Part shown: positions 13,857-45,679 of the stretch, in pieces
Layout: each line of letters begins with the position of its first letter
Numbering within the stretch: the first letter of the stretch is position 1
Source: Chryseolinea serpens
GTDB taxonomy: Bacteria > Bacteroidota > Bacteroidia > Cytophagales > Cyclobacteriaceae
DNA length: 64,000 nucleotides
NCBI RefSeq assembly: GCF_900129725.1
Contig: NZ_FQWQ01000001.1
Coordinates: 3,100,001-3,164,000, forward strand
Direction of reading: 5' to 3'
Translations under genes and position numbers: made by a program
Notes under the pieces: model-generated
Told to the model about the DNA's origin: nothing
Seen by the model: the letters and a program-made list of their open reading frames with translations, nothing else
The model's database searches: none

Positions 13857-14711
13857 ATGACCACCGCCTCAAACCATGAAATTGATTTGTTAGAACTGCT
13901 TTTAAAGGGGGTAAGGATCATTCGGGATAACTTTTGGCTTATCCTTGCATTCTTTATCGTCGGCAGCGCCCTGGGATCTGCCTATTATTATTCTTCCACA
14001 AAGGTGTACGAGAGCAGTATGGTCATCAGTTCCGAGATCCTGACCGAGTCGTACAGCAAACAATTGGTGGCCAGCCTTAACCGATTCAGACAGGAAGACA
14101 ATTTTCATGCTTTAGCCCAGCAGTTGAACATTTCTGAAGCCGTTGCCGAGGAGATAGCCCTCCTCACCATCAAAAGTCCATACTCCAATGAAGATGAAGT
14201 GGGCAAAGAAAATGATCGCAAATATCTTCTCGTCACGGTGGAAGTCTACAGCCTCGATATCCTGGACGAACTTCAGAAAAGCCTCATCAATTACTTTGAA
14301 AACAACGACTATGTTAAAATAAGGGTAGCGCAAAAGAAGAGCGATTATCGCCAACTCATCGACCGGTCGGAGCAGGAAATTAAAGATCTCGAAGAACTCA
14401 AGACAAAAATTAATAACGGTCAGTTGTTTCAGAATGCAAAAGGTAGCATTGTCTTTGACTTAACCCAGATCAGTACAAAAATTTTGGAGATCTCTAAGCA
14501 AAAACTCGAGCTGCAAGACGAATTGGAGCTTGTAAACAGCGTTCATGTAATCGATGGCTTCAAAAGATTTGAAACGCCGATCAGGCCCAAACTCAACCTA
14601 AACCTTATTGCCGGCTCGTTTGTGGGCATCGCCTTTGTAGGTTTGCTTTTGGCCTTCAAGTCCGTCCGTAAGCTCCTCCGCATGGAAGAAGAATCACGCA
14701 AAGCCGCATGA
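13857..14711 (+). CDS. Wzz-like polysaccharide chain-length determinant protein
   Basis: A 284-residue inner-membrane protein with one helix near 24-45 (FWLILAFFIVGSALGSAYYY), a long charged and partly coiled-coil periplasmic section, and a second helix near 249-270. RPKLNLNLIAGSF, leading into the second helix, resembles the proline-rich motif of Wzz proteins. It would act as polysaccharide co-polymerase for the divergent locus. It lacks a C-terminal tyrosine kinase domain. The stop overlaps the ccmB start as ATGA, an unexpected link to cytochrome c maturation. Family fairly sure; target polysaccharide inferred from position. Confidence 0.78.
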   Translation: MTTASNHEIDLLELLLKGVRIIRDNFWLILAFFIVGSALGSAYYYSSTKVYESSMVISSEILTESYSKQLVASLNRFRQEDNFHALAQQLNISEAVAEEIALLTIKSPYSNEDEVGKENDRKYLLVTVEVYSLDILDELQKSLINYFENNDYVKIRVAQKKSDYRQLIDRSEQEIKDLEELKTKINNGQLFQNAKGSIVFDLTQISTKILEISKQKLELQDELELVNSVHVIDGFKRFETPIRPKLNLNLIAGSFVGIAFVGLLLAFKSVRKLLRMEEESRKAA

Positions 14712-15364
14712 TCCTCCACCTCATCCATAAAGAACTCACGCTTGAGCTCCGGCGCAAAGCCGTGATCTCGGGCATCGGCGTTTACCTGTTCAGCCTCATC
14801 TTCATTTGCTACCTCACGTTCAGCCTACGCCAGAATTCCATCAACGAAGCTACCTGGTCGGCCCTGTTCTGGCTGGCCATTTTGTTTTCGGTGGTCAATA
14901 GCGTGGCCAAGAGCTTTATCGGGGAAAAAAAAGGCTCCTTCATTTACTATTATGCCGTTGCCAGCCCGCAGGCCATCATTCTGTCCAAGATCCTGTATAA
15001 CACCTTGCTGTGTCTCCTTTTGTCGCTGGCCGGCTATGCCCTGTTCTCCCTGTTCATCGGCAACCCCATCCAGGACCACGCGCTTTTTCTGCTCACCCTT
15101 TTGCTTACCTCGTTCGGATTTTCGGCGGCGCTGAGCCTCATTTCCGGCATCGCCTCCAAAGCCAACAACAGCAACATCCTGATGGCCGTGCTCAGCTTCC
15201 CCGTGATCCTGGCGTTGCTCCTGATGGCCATCAAGATCACCAAAAACGTGCTCGACGGCCTGGACCGATCCGTTAGCATAGACGAATTGCTGAACCTGCT
15301 GGCAATAAATTGCATCCTGACGGGTCTGTCGTACATGCTCTTCCCGTATATTTGGCGCAGTTAA
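14708..15364 (+). CDS. ccmB: Haem exporter subunit CcmB
   Basis: A 218-residue protein with six hydrophobic segments and the CcmB N-terminus, a short amphipathic stretch with KELTLELRRK before helix 1. SFIGEKKGSFIYYYAVASP near 68-86 corresponds to the conserved cytoplasmic loop. CcmB is the membrane part of the CcmAB ATPase, which powers release of holo-CcmE from CcmC. No ccmA gene is present in the window. It heads a plus-strand set of ccm genes and overlaps the wzz-like gene by four bases. Confidence 0.88.
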   Translation: MILHLIHKELTLELRRKAVISGIGVYLFSLIFICYLTFSLRQNSINEATWSALFWLAILFSVVNSVAKSFIGEKKGSFIYYYAVASPQAIILSKILYNTLLCLLLSLAGYALFSLFIGNPIQDHALFLLTLLLTSFGFSAALSLISGIASKANNSNILMAVLSFPVILALLLMAIKITKNVLDGLDRSVSIDELLNLLAINCILTGLSYMLFPYIWRS

Positions 15365-15421
15365 GAAGGCGGGCAACCCATTTTTCAGAAATCCGTTTGC
15401 ACCCCTTGTTTTATCTCCTCC

Positions 15422-16099
15422 ATGAAGACCTGGCTAAAAATTCTTGCTATCGTTTTGCTTTTCTACGTTCACATCGGCGGCCTGCTCATGGATGTTCCAC
15501 GGCTCAACATCCTGAACGAGACCATTCGGGCCCTCTATTTCCACGTGCCCATGTGGTTTGGGATGGTGACGTTATTTCTCATTTCCGTGGTTTACTCCGT
15601 TCTATATTTGGTCAATCCCTCGGTTGCGCTTGATCGCAAAGCCGTGGAATTCGCCAATGTGGGCCTTGTTTTTGGCATTTTGGGCATGCTCACGGGCATG
15701 TTGTGGGCCAACTATGCCTGGGGTTCCTTCTGGCACGGCGATCCAAAACAAAACGGTGCCGCCATCGCCCTGCTGGTCTACCTGGCCTATTTCATCTTGC
15801 GCGGCTCGGTCGAAAATGAAGAGCAAAAGGCTCGCCTCAGCGCCGTCTATAACATTTTTGCCTTTGCGGCCATGATCCCGCTCATATTCATCATTCCCCG
15901 CCTCACCAGTTCGCTGCACCCCGGCAGCGGCGGCAACCCGGGTTTCAATATGTACGACCTCGACAACCGCATGCGCATGGTTTTCTACCCAGCGGTGATC
16001 GGCTGGATCCTCATCGGCATCTGGGTGACGACGCTGCGGGTGAGAATGCGGGGCATCGAAGATAAAATTCACGACTTAGAAGATGAAAAAACTCATTAG
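15422..16099 (+). CDS. ccmC: Haem-handling membrane protein CcmC
   Basis: A 225-residue protein with six membrane helices. It belongs to the haem-handling WWD family: the periplasmic loop reads WANYAWGSFWHGDPKQNG near 99-116, and candidate haem-ligand histidines are HVPMW near 41-45 and SLHPGSG near 160-166. The loop keeps WGxxW and the Asp but has His-Gly where the third Trp of the textbook motif is expected. CcmC loads haem onto CcmE. The 3' end overlaps the ccmD start by 17 bases, as is common for this pair. Confidence 0.88.
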   Translation: MKTWLKILAIVLLFYVHIGGLLMDVPRLNILNETIRALYFHVPMWFGMVTLFLISVVYSVLYLVNPSVALDRKAVEFANVGLVFGILGMLTGMLWANYAWGSFWHGDPKQNGAAIALLVYLAYFILRGSVENEEQKARLSAVYNIFAFAAMIPLIFIIPRLTSSLHPGSGGNPGFNMYDLDNRMRMVFYPAVIGWILIGIWVTTLRVRMRGIEDKIHDLEDEKTH

Positions 16100-16319
16100 C
16101 AGCCTCCTGGGCCTCATTTTGATGGCCCTCAGCCTTTCCGCAAACGCGCAAACCGACGTGCCCATGGCCGACGGCCTCCGCTCCGAAGGCAAGATCTATG
16201 TGGTGGTCGCCATTATCCTCATTGTGTTGGCCGGACTGATCACGTACCTCTTTTTGATGGATCGCAAAGTGAAAAAGCTGGAAGATCTTCTCGCTGACAA
16301 AAATCACTCAACCAAATAG
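16083..16319 (+). CDS. ccmD: CcmD-like small membrane protein
   Basis: A 78-residue protein with an N-terminal signal-like segment ending near ANAQ (about 22-25), one membrane helix near 41-60 and a basic C-terminal tail, DRKVKKLEDLL. That tail after a single helix is the CcmD hallmark; the additional N-terminal hydrophobic segment is unlike the enterobacterial protein and gives it either a cleaved signal or a second helix. CcmD stabilises CcmC-CcmE and CcmAB contacts. Assignment relies partly on position between ccmC and ccmE. Confidence 0.75.
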   Translation: MKKLISSLLGLILMALSLSANAQTDVPMADGLRSEGKIYVVVAIILIVLAGLITYLFLMDRKVKKLEDLLADKNHSTK

Positions 16320-16333
16320 GGCGGCCTCCGTAT

Positions 16334-16355
16334 TTCAGGTAAAAAATTACCTGAA
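16334..16355. repeat. Perfect inverted repeat TTCAGGTAA / TTACCTGAA ahead of ccmE
   Basis: Nine-base arms separated by AAAA lie in the 87-base gap between ccmD and ccmE, ending 18 bases before a TAATTTTG element. The symmetry and the position over the likely -33 region suggest a repressor or activator site. The alternative is a weak AT-rich hairpin at the end of the ccmBCD transcript. Confidence 0.45.
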
Positions 16356-16373
16356 TTTCTAGTCGTTTGTGGC

Positions 16374-16381
16374 TAATTTTG
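16374..16381 (+). promoter_or_regulatory. Putative -7 element TAATTTTG for ccmE-ccmF
   Basis: TAATTTTG is a full match to TAnnTTTG, 25 bases before the ccmE start. It would let ccmE and ccmF be transcribed separately from ccmBCD. No convincing -33 TTG is seen; the inverted repeat lies where that box should be. Confidence 0.4.
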
Positions 16382-16406
16382 CCCGGACTTTTGAAGGGAA
16401 CGCTTT

Positions 16407-16811
16407 ATGAAAAAATCACACATTCTCATCCTGGTGGTCATTGCCGTCGCAATCGGCATCATCGTTTCCACCTCCAACGACGCCAGCACCTACGTCGGCT
16501 TTGACGAGGCGCTCAGCCTGTCTACTTCCGGCAACAAAAAAGACATTCACGTGGTGGGCGAGCTGAAGAAGGATGACGAAGGCCATGTGATCGGCATCAC
16601 CGAAGGCGCCGACCGGGTGTCCTTTTCCTTTGTGATGATCGACGACACCGGCAAGGAACAGCGCGTGAACTACAACCAGCCCATGCCCGCCGATTTTCTG
16701 CGTTCCGAAAAAGTGGTGGTCATCGGCAGCTATCACGGCACGGATTTCAACGCCAGCAAGATCCTTCTCAAGTGTCCTTCCAAATACCAGGAGCAAAAGA
16801 TCAATGTTTGA
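16407..16811 (+). CDS. ccmE: Haem chaperone CcmE, CxxxY variant
   Basis: A 134-residue protein with an N-terminal membrane anchor (about 5-21) and the OB-fold pattern of CcmE: VVGELKKDDEGHVIG, VSFSFVMIDDTGKE, LRSEKVVVIGSYHG. The haem-attachment segment reads LLKCPSKYQE at about 120-129. Against E. coli LAKHDENY the covalent-haem histidine is a cysteine, while the tyrosine four residues on is kept. The CxxxY form is known from archaea and sulfate reducers whose Ccm systems lack CcmH and CcmG. It should carry haem from CcmC to CcmF in the periplasm. A candidate own promoter and an inverted repeat precede it. Confidence 0.85.
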   Translation: MKKSHILILVVIAVAIGIIVSTSNDASTYVGFDEALSLSTSGNKKDIHVVGELKKDDEGHVIGITEGADRVSFSFVMIDDTGKEQRVNYNQPMPADFLRSEKVVVIGSYHGTDFNASKILLKCPSKYQEQKINV

Positions 16812-16907
16812 TCGGCTCCAACTGCCGTCAGCTAGTGCCGGCCTCGCTCGCATCACACCCACACCCTTCATTTCGCGCCCTGCGGATCGTCCACTAAATC
16901 AGCCAGC

Positions 16908-19439
16908 ATGCATTACCTGATCGGTGACCTGGGTCACCTTTTTGTTATCACCTCTTTCATCACTTCGCTTGTCACGGCCTTTGCCTACTTCAAGGCCACC
17001 ACCGTCAACGACTTGGAGAAAAAGACCTTTTGGCTGCACAACGGGCGAACCGGTTTCTATCTGCATGCCGCCGCCGTGGTGGGCATCTGCGTCACGCTGT
17101 TTGTCATCATCTCCAATCATTACTTCGAATACCACTACGCCTACAACTACTCCGATCGCAAGCTGCCCGTCTACTACCTCATCTCCACATTCTGGAACGG
17201 CCAGGAAGGCAGCTTCATGCTGTGGCTGTTCTGGCAGGCTATGCTGGGTCTTGTCCTCATCCACACCAACAAATTCTGGGAAGCGCCGGTCATGACGGTG
17301 TTTGCCCTGGTGCAGGCGTTCCTGGCCTCGATGATCCTGGGTGTGGTCATTCCGGGACTTGGATCCAAGATCGGAAGCTCGCCTTTCATTTTGTTGCGTG
17401 ACGCCATGCACGAAGCGCCCATATTCATGGCCCAACCCGAGTTTGTGCCAAAGGATGGGAACGGTCTCAATCCACTGTTACAAAACTATTGGATGGTCAT
17501 TCACCCGCCCACACTCTTCCTGGGCTTCGCCACCACGCTGGTGCCGTTCTCATTTTGCATCGCGGGACTTTGGCTGAAAAAATACCAGGACTGGATCCGT
17601 CCCGCATTGCCGTGGGCGTTGTTCAGTGGCGCCGTGTTGGGGCTGGGCATTCTTATGGGCGGTTATTGGGCCTATGAGACCTTGAACTTTGGTGGCTATT
17701 GGAATTGGGATCCCGTAGAGAATGCGATATACGTTCCGTGGTTGGTCCTCGTCGGCGCCATACACACCATGATCACCTACAAAAACAGCGAGACTGCCTT
17801 GAAGGCCTCCATCGTCCTGGTGATCACCACTTTCATCCTCATTCTTTACGCCACATTCCTCACCCGCAGCGGCGTGCTCGGCGATGCGTCCGTGCACTCC
17901 TTCACCGACCTTGGACTTTCAGGTCAGTTGCTTATCTATCTTTTCTTTTTCCTGATTGCGGCCGTAGCGTTGTCCATCGCCCGCTGGCGTGAAATTCCTT
18001 CTTCCGAGAAAGAAGCTTCGACGTACTCCCGTGAGTTCTGGATTTTTATCGGCGCCGTAACCTTGTGCCTCATGGGCTTCCAGGTATTGTTGCCCACCTC
18101 CATTCCCGTTTGGAACAAGATTCTCCACGGCATTGGCATCACCTCAAATCTTGCCATCCCCGGCGATCAGATCACGTTCTACTCCCGGTTCCAGTTGTGG
18201 TTCGCGGTAGTGGTAGGGTTGCTTTCGGGTGTCGGACAATTTTTCTGGTGGAAGAAGATCGACAAGGATCAACTCAAAAAAGAACTGACCGTCCCGGTGC
18301 TGATCACCCTCATTATTTTTGCCCTGATCGTGACCATCGGACAAGTCTACACCTACACCTACGTGATCCTTACCCTCGCCGGCGTTTTCACGGTGGTGTC
18401 GAATACAAAAATTCTTTTTTCCTTGTTGAAATCCAGTCCCGGTCTTTCGGGCGGAGCGGTAGCCCATATGGGTGTCGGCATGATGCTTTTGGGTATTATG
18501 TTTTCCGCCGGCTATTCGAAGATCGTTTCGCTGAACAACACGGGCATGCGCATCTCGAATGAATTCAGCGAAGATTTCAACCGCGACAACCTCCTCCTCT
18601 TCATAAACGAACCCCGCACCATGTGGGGATACGACATCGAGTTCCTCGGCGAACGTCTGGAGCCGCGTCATCACGGTGGCTATATACGCAAAAGCGATGT
18701 GATGCCCACCGGCGACAGGGATCTTGTGGTTGCCAAACGCAACTTCACCGCCAACGGAACAACCTTCAAAGCCAACGACACGATCGACATCCGCGGGGAG
18801 AATACATTCTATGAAATTCAACTCCGGAAAAACGGTCGCGCCTATACGCTCTATCCCCGCGCGCAGATAAACCCGGAAATGGGCGGTCTTTTGGTTTCGC
18901 CTGATATTTACAGAACGGTCTCAGCCGATCTCTACACCCACGTATCGTCCGTGATGAAACCTTCGGAGGAAGAAGCGTGGAGCAAACTGGAAGAAATGAA
19001 TGTGAAGATCGGCCAACAATTCTACGCCAACGACTATGTCTGCGTGCTGGATTCGATCGACCGCGTTTTTGACGTAAACGGTGTCCACCTCAATCCGGAA
19101 GACGTGGCCGTGAAAGCCAAGATCCGCATCCGCGGCGAAAAAGGTGACTACTATGCTGAGCCCATTTTCCTGATCAAAGATAAAATGGCGGGCCGCATCC
19201 CCGACGAGGTGGCCGACCTGGGCCTGCGCATCACCTTGCTGAACATCCACCCCGAAACCAACGAATTCGCACTGGGCATCAACACCCGCCAAAAAGATTG
19301 GGTGGTGATCAAGGCCCTGGAGAAGCCCTACATCAACCTGCTTTGGCTCGGCACCCTGGTGCTGATGGGCGGCTTCGGCATTGCCATGACGCGGCGCGTG
19401 CGCGAATTCCGGAAGATGAAAGCCAAAGGCTTCGAATAA
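16908..19439 (+). CDS. ccmF: Cytochrome c haem lyase subunit CcmF
   Basis: An 843-residue membrane protein, clearly longer than the roughly 650-residue enterobacterial CcmF. It shows the WWD loop GGYWNWDPVENA near 261-272, the external histidine segment WMVIHPPTLFLGF near 196-208, and the preceding FWNGQEGSFMLW. The C-terminal 300 residues (about 535-810) form a large soluble, presumably periplasmic, domain before a final helix. CcmF attaches haem to apocytochrome c. No ccmG or ccmH gene follows, so the extra domain may stand in for part of the missing machinery; that is inference. Confidence 0.92.
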   Translation: MHYLIGDLGHLFVITSFITSLVTAFAYFKATTVNDLEKKTFWLHNGRTGFYLHAAAVVGICVTLFVIISNHYFEYHYAYNYSDRKLPVYYLISTFWNGQEGSFMLWLFWQAMLGLVLIHTNKFWEAPVMTVFALVQAFLASMILGVVIPGLGSKIGSSPFILLRDAMHEAPIFMAQPEFVPKDGNGLNPLLQNYWMVIHPPTLFLGFATTLVPFSFCIAGLWLKKYQDWIRPALPWALFSGAVLGLGILMGGYWAYETLNFGGYWNWDPVENAIYVPWLVLVGAIHTMITYKNSETALKASIVLVITTFILILYATFLTRSGVLGDASVHSFTDLGLSGQLLIYLFFFLIAAVALSIARWREIPSSEKEASTYSREFWIFIGAVTLCLMGFQVLLPTSIPVWNKILHGIGITSNLAIPGDQITFYSRFQLWFAVVVGLLSGVGQFFWWKKIDKDQLKKELTVPVLITLIIFALIVTIGQVYTYTYVILTLAGVFTVVSNTKILFSLLKSSPGLSGGAVAHMGVGMMLLGIMFSAGYSKIVSLNNTGMRISNEFSEDFNRDNLLLFINEPRTMWGYDIEFLGERLEPRHHGGYIRKSDVMPTGDRDLVVAKRNFTANGTTFKANDTIDIRGENTFYEIQLRKNGRAYTLYPRAQINPEMGGLLVSPDIYRTVSADLYTHVSSVMKPSEEEAWSKLEEMNVKIGQQFYANDYVCVLDSIDRVFDVNGVHLNPEDVAVKAKIRIRGEKGDYYAEPIFLIKDKMAGRIPDEVADLGLRITLLNIHPETNEFALGINTRQKDWVVIKALEKPYINLLWLGTLVLMGGFGIAMTRRVREFRKMKAKGFE

Positions 19440-43938: not shown

Positions 43939-44675
43939 CGCCCAAATTCCGCTGCCTGCTGATCGACGATGAGCCCCCCGCGCTGGAGGTGCTCCGGACG
44001 TATATCGCGACGCTGCCAACGCTGGAAGTCGTGGGCGAATGTCATCACGCACTGGCGGCCTTCGAGTTTCTCCGACAGCATCCGGTGGACCTGCTCTTCC
44101 TCGACATCCAAATGCCCCGCTTGCTGGGCACCGAATTTCTAAAAGCCCTACCCAATCCACCCCGCGTCATCTTCACCACGGCTCACCGCGACTACGCCGT
44201 GGAAGGCTTTGAATTGGGTGCGGTTGACTATCTATTGAAGCCTTACTCCTTGGAGCGCTTCCTGCGTGCCGTCCACAAAGTGCTGGACCTAGAGCATCGT
44301 CACACCCCAGCGCACGGCCGAAAGGAATCGCTGCACGCCGCCGACGAACGCTTCCTCTACGTCCGCGCCGATCGCAAGATGGTGAAGGTCATGGTCGACG
44401 AGATCCAATACATCGAAAGCCTGAAAGATTATGTAAAGATCGTGACCTCCAAACAGGTCATCACCAAACAAACCATCACCGCACTGGAAGAAATGTTGCC
44501 CGAAGAAGACTTCATGCGCATCCATCGTTCCTTCATTGTGTCGGTGAAGAAAATTGATTCGTATAGTCAACACGCCGTGTTCATGGGCAAGACAGAATTG
44601 CCCGTGGGCCCGTTGTACAAACAGGAAATTATGAAACGGTTGAATAAGGTTGGCGTGAACGATGCAACCCCTTAG
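43935..44675 (+). CDS. LytTR-family response regulator
   Basis: A 246-residue transcription factor starting at GTG within a GTGA overlap with the kinase gene. The receiver has LLIDDEPPALEVL near 8-20 and the phospho-acceptor Asp in LLFLDIQMPRL near 54-64; KPYS near 107 gives the Lys. The LytTR DNA-binding domain spans about 140-240 (RADRKMVKVMVDEIQYIE, then MRIHRSFIVSVKKID). It should bind direct repeats upstream of its targets. Its 3' end overlaps the convergent ferrochelatase gene by four bases. Confidence 0.9.
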   Translation: MTPKFRCLLIDDEPPALEVLRTYIATLPTLEVVGECHHALAAFEFLRQHPVDLLFLDIQMPRLLGTEFLKALPNPPRVIFTTAHRDYAVEGFELGAVDYLLKPYSLERFLRAVHKVLDLEHRHTPAHGRKESLHAADERFLYVRADRKMVKVMVDEIQYIESLKDYVKIVTSKQVITKQTITALEEMLPEEDFMRIHRSFIVSVKKIDSYSQHAVFMGKTELPVGPLYKQEIMKRLNKVGVNDATP

Positions 44676-45679
44676 GTGGTCACCAGATCTTTCAGACAGT
44701 CGATCCAGGTGGGGTGATCATTCAGGCTCTCCACCAGTTGTACTTTTTCTCCACCGTGCTCTTTGAAGATCTCCTGGTATTCGTCGCCGATCTCGATGAT
44801 GGTCTCCAGGCAATCGGCCGTGAATGCTGGGGAAAATACAAGGATCTTTTTCATTCCCTTGCGCGCACATTCCTCCACTACCTTGTCGGAAAACGGCATC
44901 AGCCATTTTTTATCGAGGCGCGATTGAAAGCAGACGGTATATTTTCCCTGGGGAATGTTCAGCTTCTCGACCAGTAGCCGTGTCGTAGCATAGCACGTGG
45001 CTTTGTAACAATATTTGTTTTCTTCGGTGATCTCGTTCTCACAGTTGTGATCGGCGCAATGACCATCATCGTATACCTTATCCACCTGCCGTTCGGGCAA
45101 GCCGTGATAGGAGAACAAGATGTGATCGTAGTCCGCAAAATTATACTTCCGGCCACGGGCTGCGAAAGCCTCGATGAATTTCGGATGGTCGTAATACTGG
45201 CTGATGAATTTCACTTCCGGCACCACCCACCAGGTGCGCATCACCCGCATCACCTCATCCAAGGCCGACCCCGTCGACGCGGAGGCATATTGCGGGAACA
45301 TGGGCAACACAATGATCTTCTCATAGTTCTTCTTTCTCATCACCTCCAACACATCCGGAAGCGATGGATTCTTGTAGCGCATGGCCAGATGCACTTCATA
45401 GTCGCTACCCAACGATGCCTGCAAAAGACCCTTTGCCTTTTCGCTATGATACAACAAAGGCGATCCATTGGCCGTCCATAGTTTTTTATAAATTTTGGCC
45501 GACTTGGAGGCGCGGAACGGGACGATCAGAAAGTTCACGAGGAGCTTCCGTGGCAGCCACGGTATGTCGATCACCCGTGGATCGTTGAGAAATTGTGAGA
45601 GATACGAGCGCACATCGCCGACAGCAGGGCTATCGGGTGTACCCAGATTTATAAGTAAAACGCCAGTTTTGCTTTTCAT
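44672..45679 (-). CDS. hemH: Ferrochelatase
   Basis: A 335-residue enzyme inserting iron into protoporphyrin to make haem. The N-terminus GVLLINLGTPDSP is standard. The catalytic histidine is in FSYHGLPERQV near 187-197, and PAFTADCLETIIEIG near 280 supplies the active-site Glu. A cysteine-containing stretch after the histidine (DGHCADHNCENE) is notable. It follows the GNAT gene by 7 bases in a kinase-GNAT-hemH run, and would serve the cytochromes matured by the ccm genes in this window. Confidence 0.93.
   Translation of the reverse strand: MKSKTGVLLINLGTPDSPAVGDVRSYLSQFLNDPRVIDIPWLPRKLLVNFLIVPFRASKSAKIYKKLWTANGSPLLYHSEKAKGLLQASLGSDYEVHLAMRYKNPSLPDVLEVMRKKNYEKIIVLPMFPQYASASTGSALDEVMRVMRTWWVVPEVKFISQYYDHPKFIEAFAARGRKYNFADYDHILFSYHGLPERQVDKVYDDGHCADHNCENEITEENKYCYKATCYATTRLLVEKLNIPQGKYTVCFQSRLDKKWLMPFSDKVVEECARKGMKKILVFSPAFTADCLETIIEIGDEYQEIFKEHGGEKVQLVESLNDHPTWIDCLKDLVTT

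What the first reader, a model, noticed from the sequence alone, without database searches (positions are those of the whole stretch)
16407..16811. CcmE with CxxxY in place of the haem-binding HxxxY, in a Ccm set lacking ccmA, ccmG and ccmH
Seen: the attachment segment reads LLKCPSKYQE, so the histidine that binds haem covalently in E. coli is Cys and the Tyr is kept. The window has ccmB, C, D, E and F in a row but no ccmA, ccmG or ccmH. Known: CxxxY CcmE in archaea and sulfate reducers goes with Ccm systems lacking CcmG and CcmH. Inference: this lineage uses that variant chemistry, perhaps with the extra-long CcmF.
Basis: partly seen in the sequence, partly recalled or inferred. Interest (0 to 1): 0.72.

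Follow-up and report, generated by a model that had tools for sequence, protein, structure and literature searches.

The report
Cysteine-type CcmE cytochrome maturation, Bacteroidota
This bacterium loads haem onto its cytochromes with a known variant of the Ccm machinery, in which the haem carrier uses a cysteine instead of a histidine; the variant looks normal for its phylum, its supposedly missing motor gene probably sits elsewhere in the genome, and its final enzyme has an enlarged outer domain that may stand in for a lost partner.

Summary
In detail: the only CcmE found in the genome ends ...LLKCPSKYQEQKINV, and ccmB, C, D, E, F lie in a row (14708-19439) without ccmA, G or H nearby. This is the described variant "System I*", down to its commonest motif CPSKY, and not a peculiarity of this lineage: 153 of 153 readable CcmE loci from other Bacteroidota carry CPSKY. 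CcmH is missing from this genome and passes the family cut-off in 4 of 395 phylum genomes; no System II ResB was found. But ccmA is probably not missing: a lone 213-aa ABC ATPase on another contig, directly behind lpxA, scores best as CcmA and was found in 18 of 18 CcmE-bearing and 0 of 16 CcmE-less genomes of the class. New to me is the long CcmF. Its periplasmic cap before the last membrane helix spans 219-312 residues in 92 Bacteroidota CcmF and 225-231 in three haloarchaeal loci without annotated CcmH, against 113-119 in six loci with CcmH. Cap size follows CcmH rather than the cysteine, with two unresolved counter-cases, so the cap is a candidate CcmH substitute. Covalent haem on the cysteine is inferred.

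The parts
14708..15364 (+). ccmB, membrane subunit of the CcmAB ATPase (218 aa)
   Evidence: Pfam PF03379, E 3.4e-12
15422..16099 (+). ccmC, presents haem to CcmE (225 aa); both haem-ligand histidines kept, WWD motif altered (WGSFWHGDPKQN)
   Evidence: Pfam PF01578 E 3.2e-20; NCBIfam ccmC 74.1 bits, better than CcsB 52.3, both under their cut-offs; alignment with 49 relatives
16083..16319 (+). ccmD of the alternative kind (78 aa)
   Evidence: Pfam PF20077 CcmD_alt E 1e-20
16407..16811 (+). ccmE with CPSKY in place of HxxxY (134 aa)
   Evidence: Pfam PF03100; AF2 OB fold, solved CcmE 1j6q, 2kct, 1sr3 among its matches
16773..16787 (+). codons of C123-P-S-K-Y127, the presumed haem attachment segment
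   Evidence: alignment with E. coli H130/Y134; CPSKY in all readable relatives
16908..19439 (+). ccmF, cytochrome c synthetase (843 aa); all four haem-ligand histidines kept (H199, H286, H330, H520)
18957..19286 (+). extra beta-rich segment of the periplasmic cap of CcmF (residues about 684-793), present in all 67 rows of alignment A4 and lacking in E. coli
   Evidence: alignments, model, span measurement

Best explanation
A complete, working System I* (cysteine-type Ccm) for c-type cytochromes. CcmC, helped by CcmD, holds haem at the periplasmic face and offers a vinyl group to C123 of CcmE, whose Y127 becomes an iron ligand. CcmB with an ATPase encoded elsewhere (the lone CcmA candidate behind lpxA) releases haem-loaded CcmE. 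CcmF takes the haem over and attaches it to CxxCH of the apocytochrome without CcmH; its enlarged periplasmic cap may hold the substrate. Reductant would come from the DsbD-like protein through a thioredoxin-fold partner not identified here. Shown: gene content, residues, folds, no CcmH or ResB found, co-occurrence of the ATPase with CcmE. Inferred: covalent Cys-haem, pairing of the lone ATPase with CcmB, role of the CcmF cap.
For: CcmB-F by Pfam. Single CcmE, CPSKY. CPSKY in 49 of 49, 75 of 75 and 29 of 29 readable relatives. 26 cytochrome-c (PF13442) matches in the genome, 24 over the family cut-off, and no ResB at E 0.01: there are clients and no sign of System II. CcmF and CcmC haem-ligand histidines conserved. 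The CcmE profile matches Desulfovibrio vulgaris CcmE 2kct with Cys on Cys. Lone ATPase: 18 of 18 CcmE+ and 0 of 16 CcmE- genomes; best NCBIfam family is ccmA; directly behind an lpxA-like gene in 8 of 8 same-class genomes examined with the orthologue, own included. DsbD-like protein at C3:183768. In print: Cys-CcmE binds haem covalently and the operon works without CcmG and CcmH for Desulfovibrio (as reported in PMC3601427, section 8); CcmABCEF suffices in Methanosarcina (PMC9084895, passages).
Against: D. vulgaris CcmE was reported to bind ferric haem noncovalently through the same Cys (PMC3884852, passage), so the covalent step is not certain. The lone ATPase scores 95.1 bits, under the ccmA cut-off of 131.6, with drrA close at 90.8. 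E. coli CcmA does not group with it in the tree, on a long branch. The 16 CcmE- genomes (of 142) fall in three families, so independent contrasts are few. It was not found beside ccmB in any locus read. In G005 and G131, outside the class, it is not beside lpxA. CcmG was not searched in the genome.
Confidence: 0.85

Rival explanations
1. Incomplete or decaying Ccm remnant: ccmA, G and H lost, cytochrome c made by another system.
For: No ccmA, G or H beside the cluster; no CcmH in the genome.
Against: No ResB of System II; 26 cytochrome-c matches; the four CcmF histidines invariant in 67 rows; ccmB-C-D-E-F together in 39 of 80 relatives' loci, several of the rest cut by contig ends.
Confidence: 0.04
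2. System I* in which CcmB has no dedicated ATPase, or borrows another; the lone ATPase behind lpxA serves lipid A or lipoprotein traffic.
For: Its place behind lpxA in 8 of 8 same-class genomes; score under the ccmA cut-off; E. coli CcmA falls elsewhere in the tree.
Against: Not found in 16 of 16 CcmE-less genomes of the class, found once in 18 of 18 CcmE-bearing ones; ccmA is its best family of 182. Not tested: whether those CcmE-less genomes keep the lpx cluster, or ccmB.
Confidence: 0.15
3. CcmE works as a noncovalent haem shuttle through the Cys thiolate, not by a thioether.
For: Reported for D. vulgaris CcmE (PMC3884852, passage).
Against: Covalent holo-CcmE reported for Desulfovibrio (PMC3601427, section 8) and haem-stained CcmE lost in C120A for Methanosarcina (PMC9084895, passages).
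Confidence: 0.15

Closest known systems
System I* (Desulfovibrio Ccm; Allen 2006 and Goddard 2010, known here only through PMC3601427)
   Same: CPSKY CcmE, CcmB-F, no CcmH; CPSKY is also the commonest motif there (25 of 36 genomes in the review).
   Different: The review's section names delta-proteobacteria, chloroflexi and firmicutes, not Bacteroidota; here ccmA is unlinked and CcmF has an enlarged periplasmic cap (Desulfovibrio CcmF length not checked).
Streamlined archaeal Ccm of Methanosarcina acetivorans (PMC9084895, passages)
   Same: Cys in CcmE, no CcmH.
   Different: That one lacks CcmD and has CcmF split in two; here a CcmD_alt is present and CcmF is one long chain.
Classical System I of E. 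coli
   Same: CcmC and CcmF haem-ligand histidines, CcmE fold, CcmF core.
   Different: Cys instead of His in CcmE, no CcmH, CcmF cap span 287 against 118 residues, ccmA elsewhere.
Metabacillus sp. B2-18 plasmid Ccm (L262, L265)
   Same: CPSKY CcmE.
   Different: Annotated with CcmH and TlpA, ATPase next to ccmB, short CcmF cap (119).

Membership tests
System I* | CcmE with Cys for the haem-binding His, Tyr kept | tested here: met
System I* | CcmB, CcmC, CcmD, CcmE, CcmF present | tested here: met
   Pfam
System I* | CcmA present | tested here: inconclusive
   Lone ATPase at C7:652281-652835, best family ccmA but under cut-off; co-occurs with CcmE
System I* | CcmH often absent (not obligatory) | tested here: met
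   Best match 12.5 bits against a cut-off of 25
System I* | CcmG absent or not detected | not tested
   None seen in the window; not searched in the genome
System I* | Covalent haem on the CcmE cysteine | not testable with these tools
   Needs haem stain of purified CcmE
Classical System I | HxxxY in CcmE | tested here: not met
   CPSKY; no second CcmE
Classical System I | CcmH | tested here: not met
System II (CcsBA/ResBC) | ResB/CcsB | tested here: not met
   0 matches at E <= 0.01 for PF05140 in the genome
Archaeal streamlined Ccm | No CcmD | tested here: not met
   CcmD_alt at 16083-16319
CcmA (TIGR01189), for the lone ATPase | Score over the equivalog cut-off (131.6 bits) | tested here: not met
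   95.1 bits; so it is called a CcmA candidate, not a member

The most novel reading that the evidence does not exclude
Enlargement of CcmF's periplasmic beta cap replaces CcmH: in lineages without CcmH (Bacteroidota, and separately haloarchaea), CcmF gained about 100-195 extra residues there that bind the apocytochrome or haem-loaded CcmE, whatever the haem-binding residue of CcmE. That would be a compensating feature of CcmH-less Ccm systems, for which a 2011 review said bioinformatics had given no evidence.
Probability: 0.3. Interest if true: 0.65.

Novelty: new member of a known kind. Interest (0 to 1): 0.42.

Why it matters
If most of a phylum makes its c-type cytochromes with cysteine-type CcmE, this variant is not an oddity of archaea and sulphate reducers but a major branch of Ccm biology, and annotators will tend to miss its ccmA because it sits in the lipid A cluster and scores under the family cut-off. 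The enlarged CcmF cap gives a concrete candidate for how a synthetase works without CcmH, testable in culturable Bacteroidota.

Tried and rejected
Rejected: 'CxxxY is a trait of this lineage' (153 of 153 readable relatives have it). Made unlikely: 'no ccmA in the genome'.

Rejected: my own idea that CcmC changed together with the acceptor residue. In the Bacteroidia loci the position of E. coli CcmC R128 is Lys in 49 of 50 rows, and W125 is kept in only 1 of 50. But further members of the phylum, outside the class and with the same CPSKY, keep W and R (WGAFWHWDPRETS and the like) in 16 of the 20 loci (four gave no match to my search pattern), and Metabacillus has CPSKY with R. So the change is not tied to the cysteine.

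Led nowhere or weak: the PDB search with the single CcmE sequence found nothing at E 0.01; the profile did, but its best match was a nucleoporin OB-like segment (9hcj, E 9.1e-6) before 2kct (1.6e-4) and 1sr3. The ATPase loci on the - strand were read in the wrong orientation and redone. Genes around ccm clusters in other genomes that I ran through Pfam (glutamate dehydrogenase-like, DUF2520, carboxypeptidase-regulatory-like, PhyH) gave no CcmG or CcmH. The ATPases found near ccm in 8 of 80 loci are only 21-31% identical to the candidate and were taken as other families. One supposed lone orthologue, L095, fell outside the clade, and its neighbourhood L121 is different; the neighbourhood of that genome's second candidate, L099, was not fetched. 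CcmH in the phylum: 11 of 395 genomes at E 0.001, 4 over the cut-off; the one run through Pfam (L291) is a protein with a zinc ribbon and a CcmH-domain match of 31.7 bits, and 4 of the 5 such places fetched have a second CcmF within the stretch. No fold match for the CcmF cap as such; it was not folded alone, so nothing follows. Desulfovibrio CcmF length could not be checked: no genome search was left, and Goddard 2010 is not held.

Counter-cases to the cap idea: the Deinococcus and Iamia plasmid loci have short caps (114; about 105) and show no annotated CcmH in the stretch fetched; their chromosomes were not examined. Ruegeria's CcmH is taken from its annotation and position only.

Rows dropped: 7 of 80 loci from the CcmF spans (coverage under 95% or length outside 760-960); 5 of 80 loci without a CcmE found (L175 and L224 begin inside ccmF; L169, L172, L200 do not); 1 of 30 low-scoring CcmE unreadable (L254); these 30 were picked by eye and are not all the low scorers. 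Alignment A5 used 49 of 74 usable CcmE loci, all chosen from ORFs with CPSKY, so its invariance is no evidence and is not used as such; A4 used 66 of 73 CcmF loci.

Papers: PMC3601427 passages and section 8; PMC12077264 passages and section 9; PMC9084895, PMC3884852, PMC4429474, PMC9616876, PMC10663686, PMC10117432, PMC10470608 passages only; Allen 2006 and Goddard 2010 nothing (through the review). That Bacteroidota System I* was not found in print rests in an open-licence library only; that an enlarged CcmF cap was not found described rests, of whose five papers I saw passages of two. PMC12077264 does include CcmC of Cytophagia and Chitinophagia in a conservation figure.

Full report

How special is CPSKY? 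Not at all within the phylum, as far as sampled. CcmE occurs in 253 of 395 phylum genomes. I read the motif in three sets: 49 of 49 relatives among loci fetched from that search, mostly high scorers; 75 of 75 loci with a CcmE, out of 80 from a scan with CcmF, a query that favours neither motif; and 29 of 29 readable out of 30 low-scoring CcmE that I picked to look for exceptions. All are CPSKY; whether the sets share species was not checked. A review reports exactly this motif as the majority of the Cys variant and calls the system System I* (PMC3601427, section 8 read); it names delta-proteobacteria, chloroflexi and firmicutes.

What is missing and what is not. CcmH: best match 12.5 bits against a cut-off of 25 in this genome; 4 of 395 phylum genomes over the cut-off, 11 at E 0.001. 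The one of these that I ran through Pfam is a zinc-ribbon protein with a CcmH-domain match (L291), in a stretch that also holds part of a second CcmF. ResB of System II: none. A DsbD-like protein is present. CcmG was not searched in the genome. ccmA: no ABC ATPase passes the ccmA cut-off among 69 matches. A profile built from four lone ccmA-like ATPases of the phylum points to G000:C7:652281-652835, 213 aa, as the best of the genome (144.1 bits; the next, 292 aa long, has 140.9). It belongs to a clade of 16 rows (100/100) that shuts out the other ABC ATPases, but also E. coli CcmA, on a long branch. Its best NCBIfam family is ccmA (95.1 bits; drrA 90.8). The telling result is its distribution. 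With a profile of 11 class members, 18 of 18 CcmE-bearing genomes have exactly one match (E between 3e-83 and 1e-52), and 0 of 16 CcmE-less genomes have any at 1e-40; none of the 34 had given a row to the profile. The 16, taken from the 142 genomes without CcmE, lie in three families, so this is fewer than 16 independent losses. In 8 of 8 same-class genomes examined with the orthologue, own included, it stands directly behind an lpxA-like gene in the lpxD - lpxC/fabZ - lpxA cluster (LpxA and LpxD checked by Pfam in the own genome, LpxC-FabZ in L114, the rest by position and N-terminal sequence). In two genomes outside the class it is not beside lpxA (L123, L124). I conclude with about 0.8 confidence that this is the missing CcmA.

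The long CcmF. From the histidine equivalent to H491 to the start of the last hydrophobic segment I measured 287 residues in the window, 237-312 (median 266) in 73 Bacteroidota loci of the 80, and 219-259 in 18 further phylum loci. Comparators with CcmH in the same locus: E. coli 118, Methylophaga 116, Pseudonocardia 117, Metabacillus 119, the Dysgonomonadaceae zrk40 plasmid 116 (CcmH of the last four supported by phmmer) and Ruegeria 113 (read, CcmH by annotation and position). Without annotated CcmH in the stretch fetched: Halorussus 229, Halobacterium noricense 231, Natronorubrum 225; but also Xanthomonas 117 (stretch too short), Deinococcus 114 and Iamia about 105, whose chromosomes were not examined. 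Metabacillus has the cysteine CcmE, CcmH and a short cap. The three haloarchaeal CcmE have neither CxxxY nor HxxxY, and their CcmF have a long cap. So the cap size follows CcmH, not the cysteine, in the few independent lineages I have. The added segment (about 684-793) is present in all 67 rows of A4 and is predicted with high confidence. The profile alignment of Halorussus CcmF stops at residue 523, before its extension, so two separate enlargements are likely. A review describes the periplasmic beta structures of CcsBA and CcmF as possible caps over the active site (PMC10663686, passage), and PMC3601427 says that bioinformatics had given no evidence for compensating features in System I* (passage). 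The cap is therefore a candidate CcmH substitute; the lineages are too few for more than that.

Mechanism, shown and inferred. Shown: residues, folds, gene content, and clients (26 cytochrome-c matches, 24 over the cut-off). Inferred from the literature: CcmC offers haem to C123 of CcmE, ATP hydrolysis by CcmAB releases it, CcmF transfers it to CxxCH. Open: thioether or thiolate bond (both reported for Desulfovibrio species), the reductant's path, the cap's role.

Verdict.

Noticed in passing
window 44675-45679 (-): Ferrochelatase (Pfam PF00762, E 3e-102), about 25 kb from the ccm cluster.
   Followed up: no
L191 8090-8476 (Mucilaginibacter lacusdianchii): A second CcmE-like protein without a CxxxY or HxxxY and with a lipoprotein-like start, directly before a normal CPSKY CcmE; no Pfam match at E 0.01.
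   Followed up: partly
L266 11851-12222, L297 11608-11982, L298 1758-2213: Three haloarchaeal plasmid-borne CcmE have ...VRAHEG... with neither CxxxY nor HxxxY, unlike the statement that almost all archaeal CcmE carry the cysteine (PMC9084895, passage).
   Followed up: partly
L291, L292, L294, L295 (four genomes of one family of the phylum): A second CcmF (784-795 aa where complete) in these stretches; in L291 and L292 some 4-6 kb from a CcmH-like protein (zinc ribbon in L291), perhaps an Nrf-like synthetase.
   Followed up: partly
L268 (plasmid of Dysgonomonadaceae bacterium zrk40): A classical ccmF-G-H-I set with short CcmF on a plasmid typed as mobilizable in a Bacteroidota strain, probably acquired.
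   Followed up: no
window 15422-16099 and 49 relatives: CcmC of these Bacteroidia has lost W125 (kept in 1 of 50 rows) and changed R128 to Lys (49 of 50) and T130 to Asn (50 of 50) in the haem-binding WWD motif, although 16 of 20 loci from elsewhere in the phylum show W and R.
   Followed up: yes
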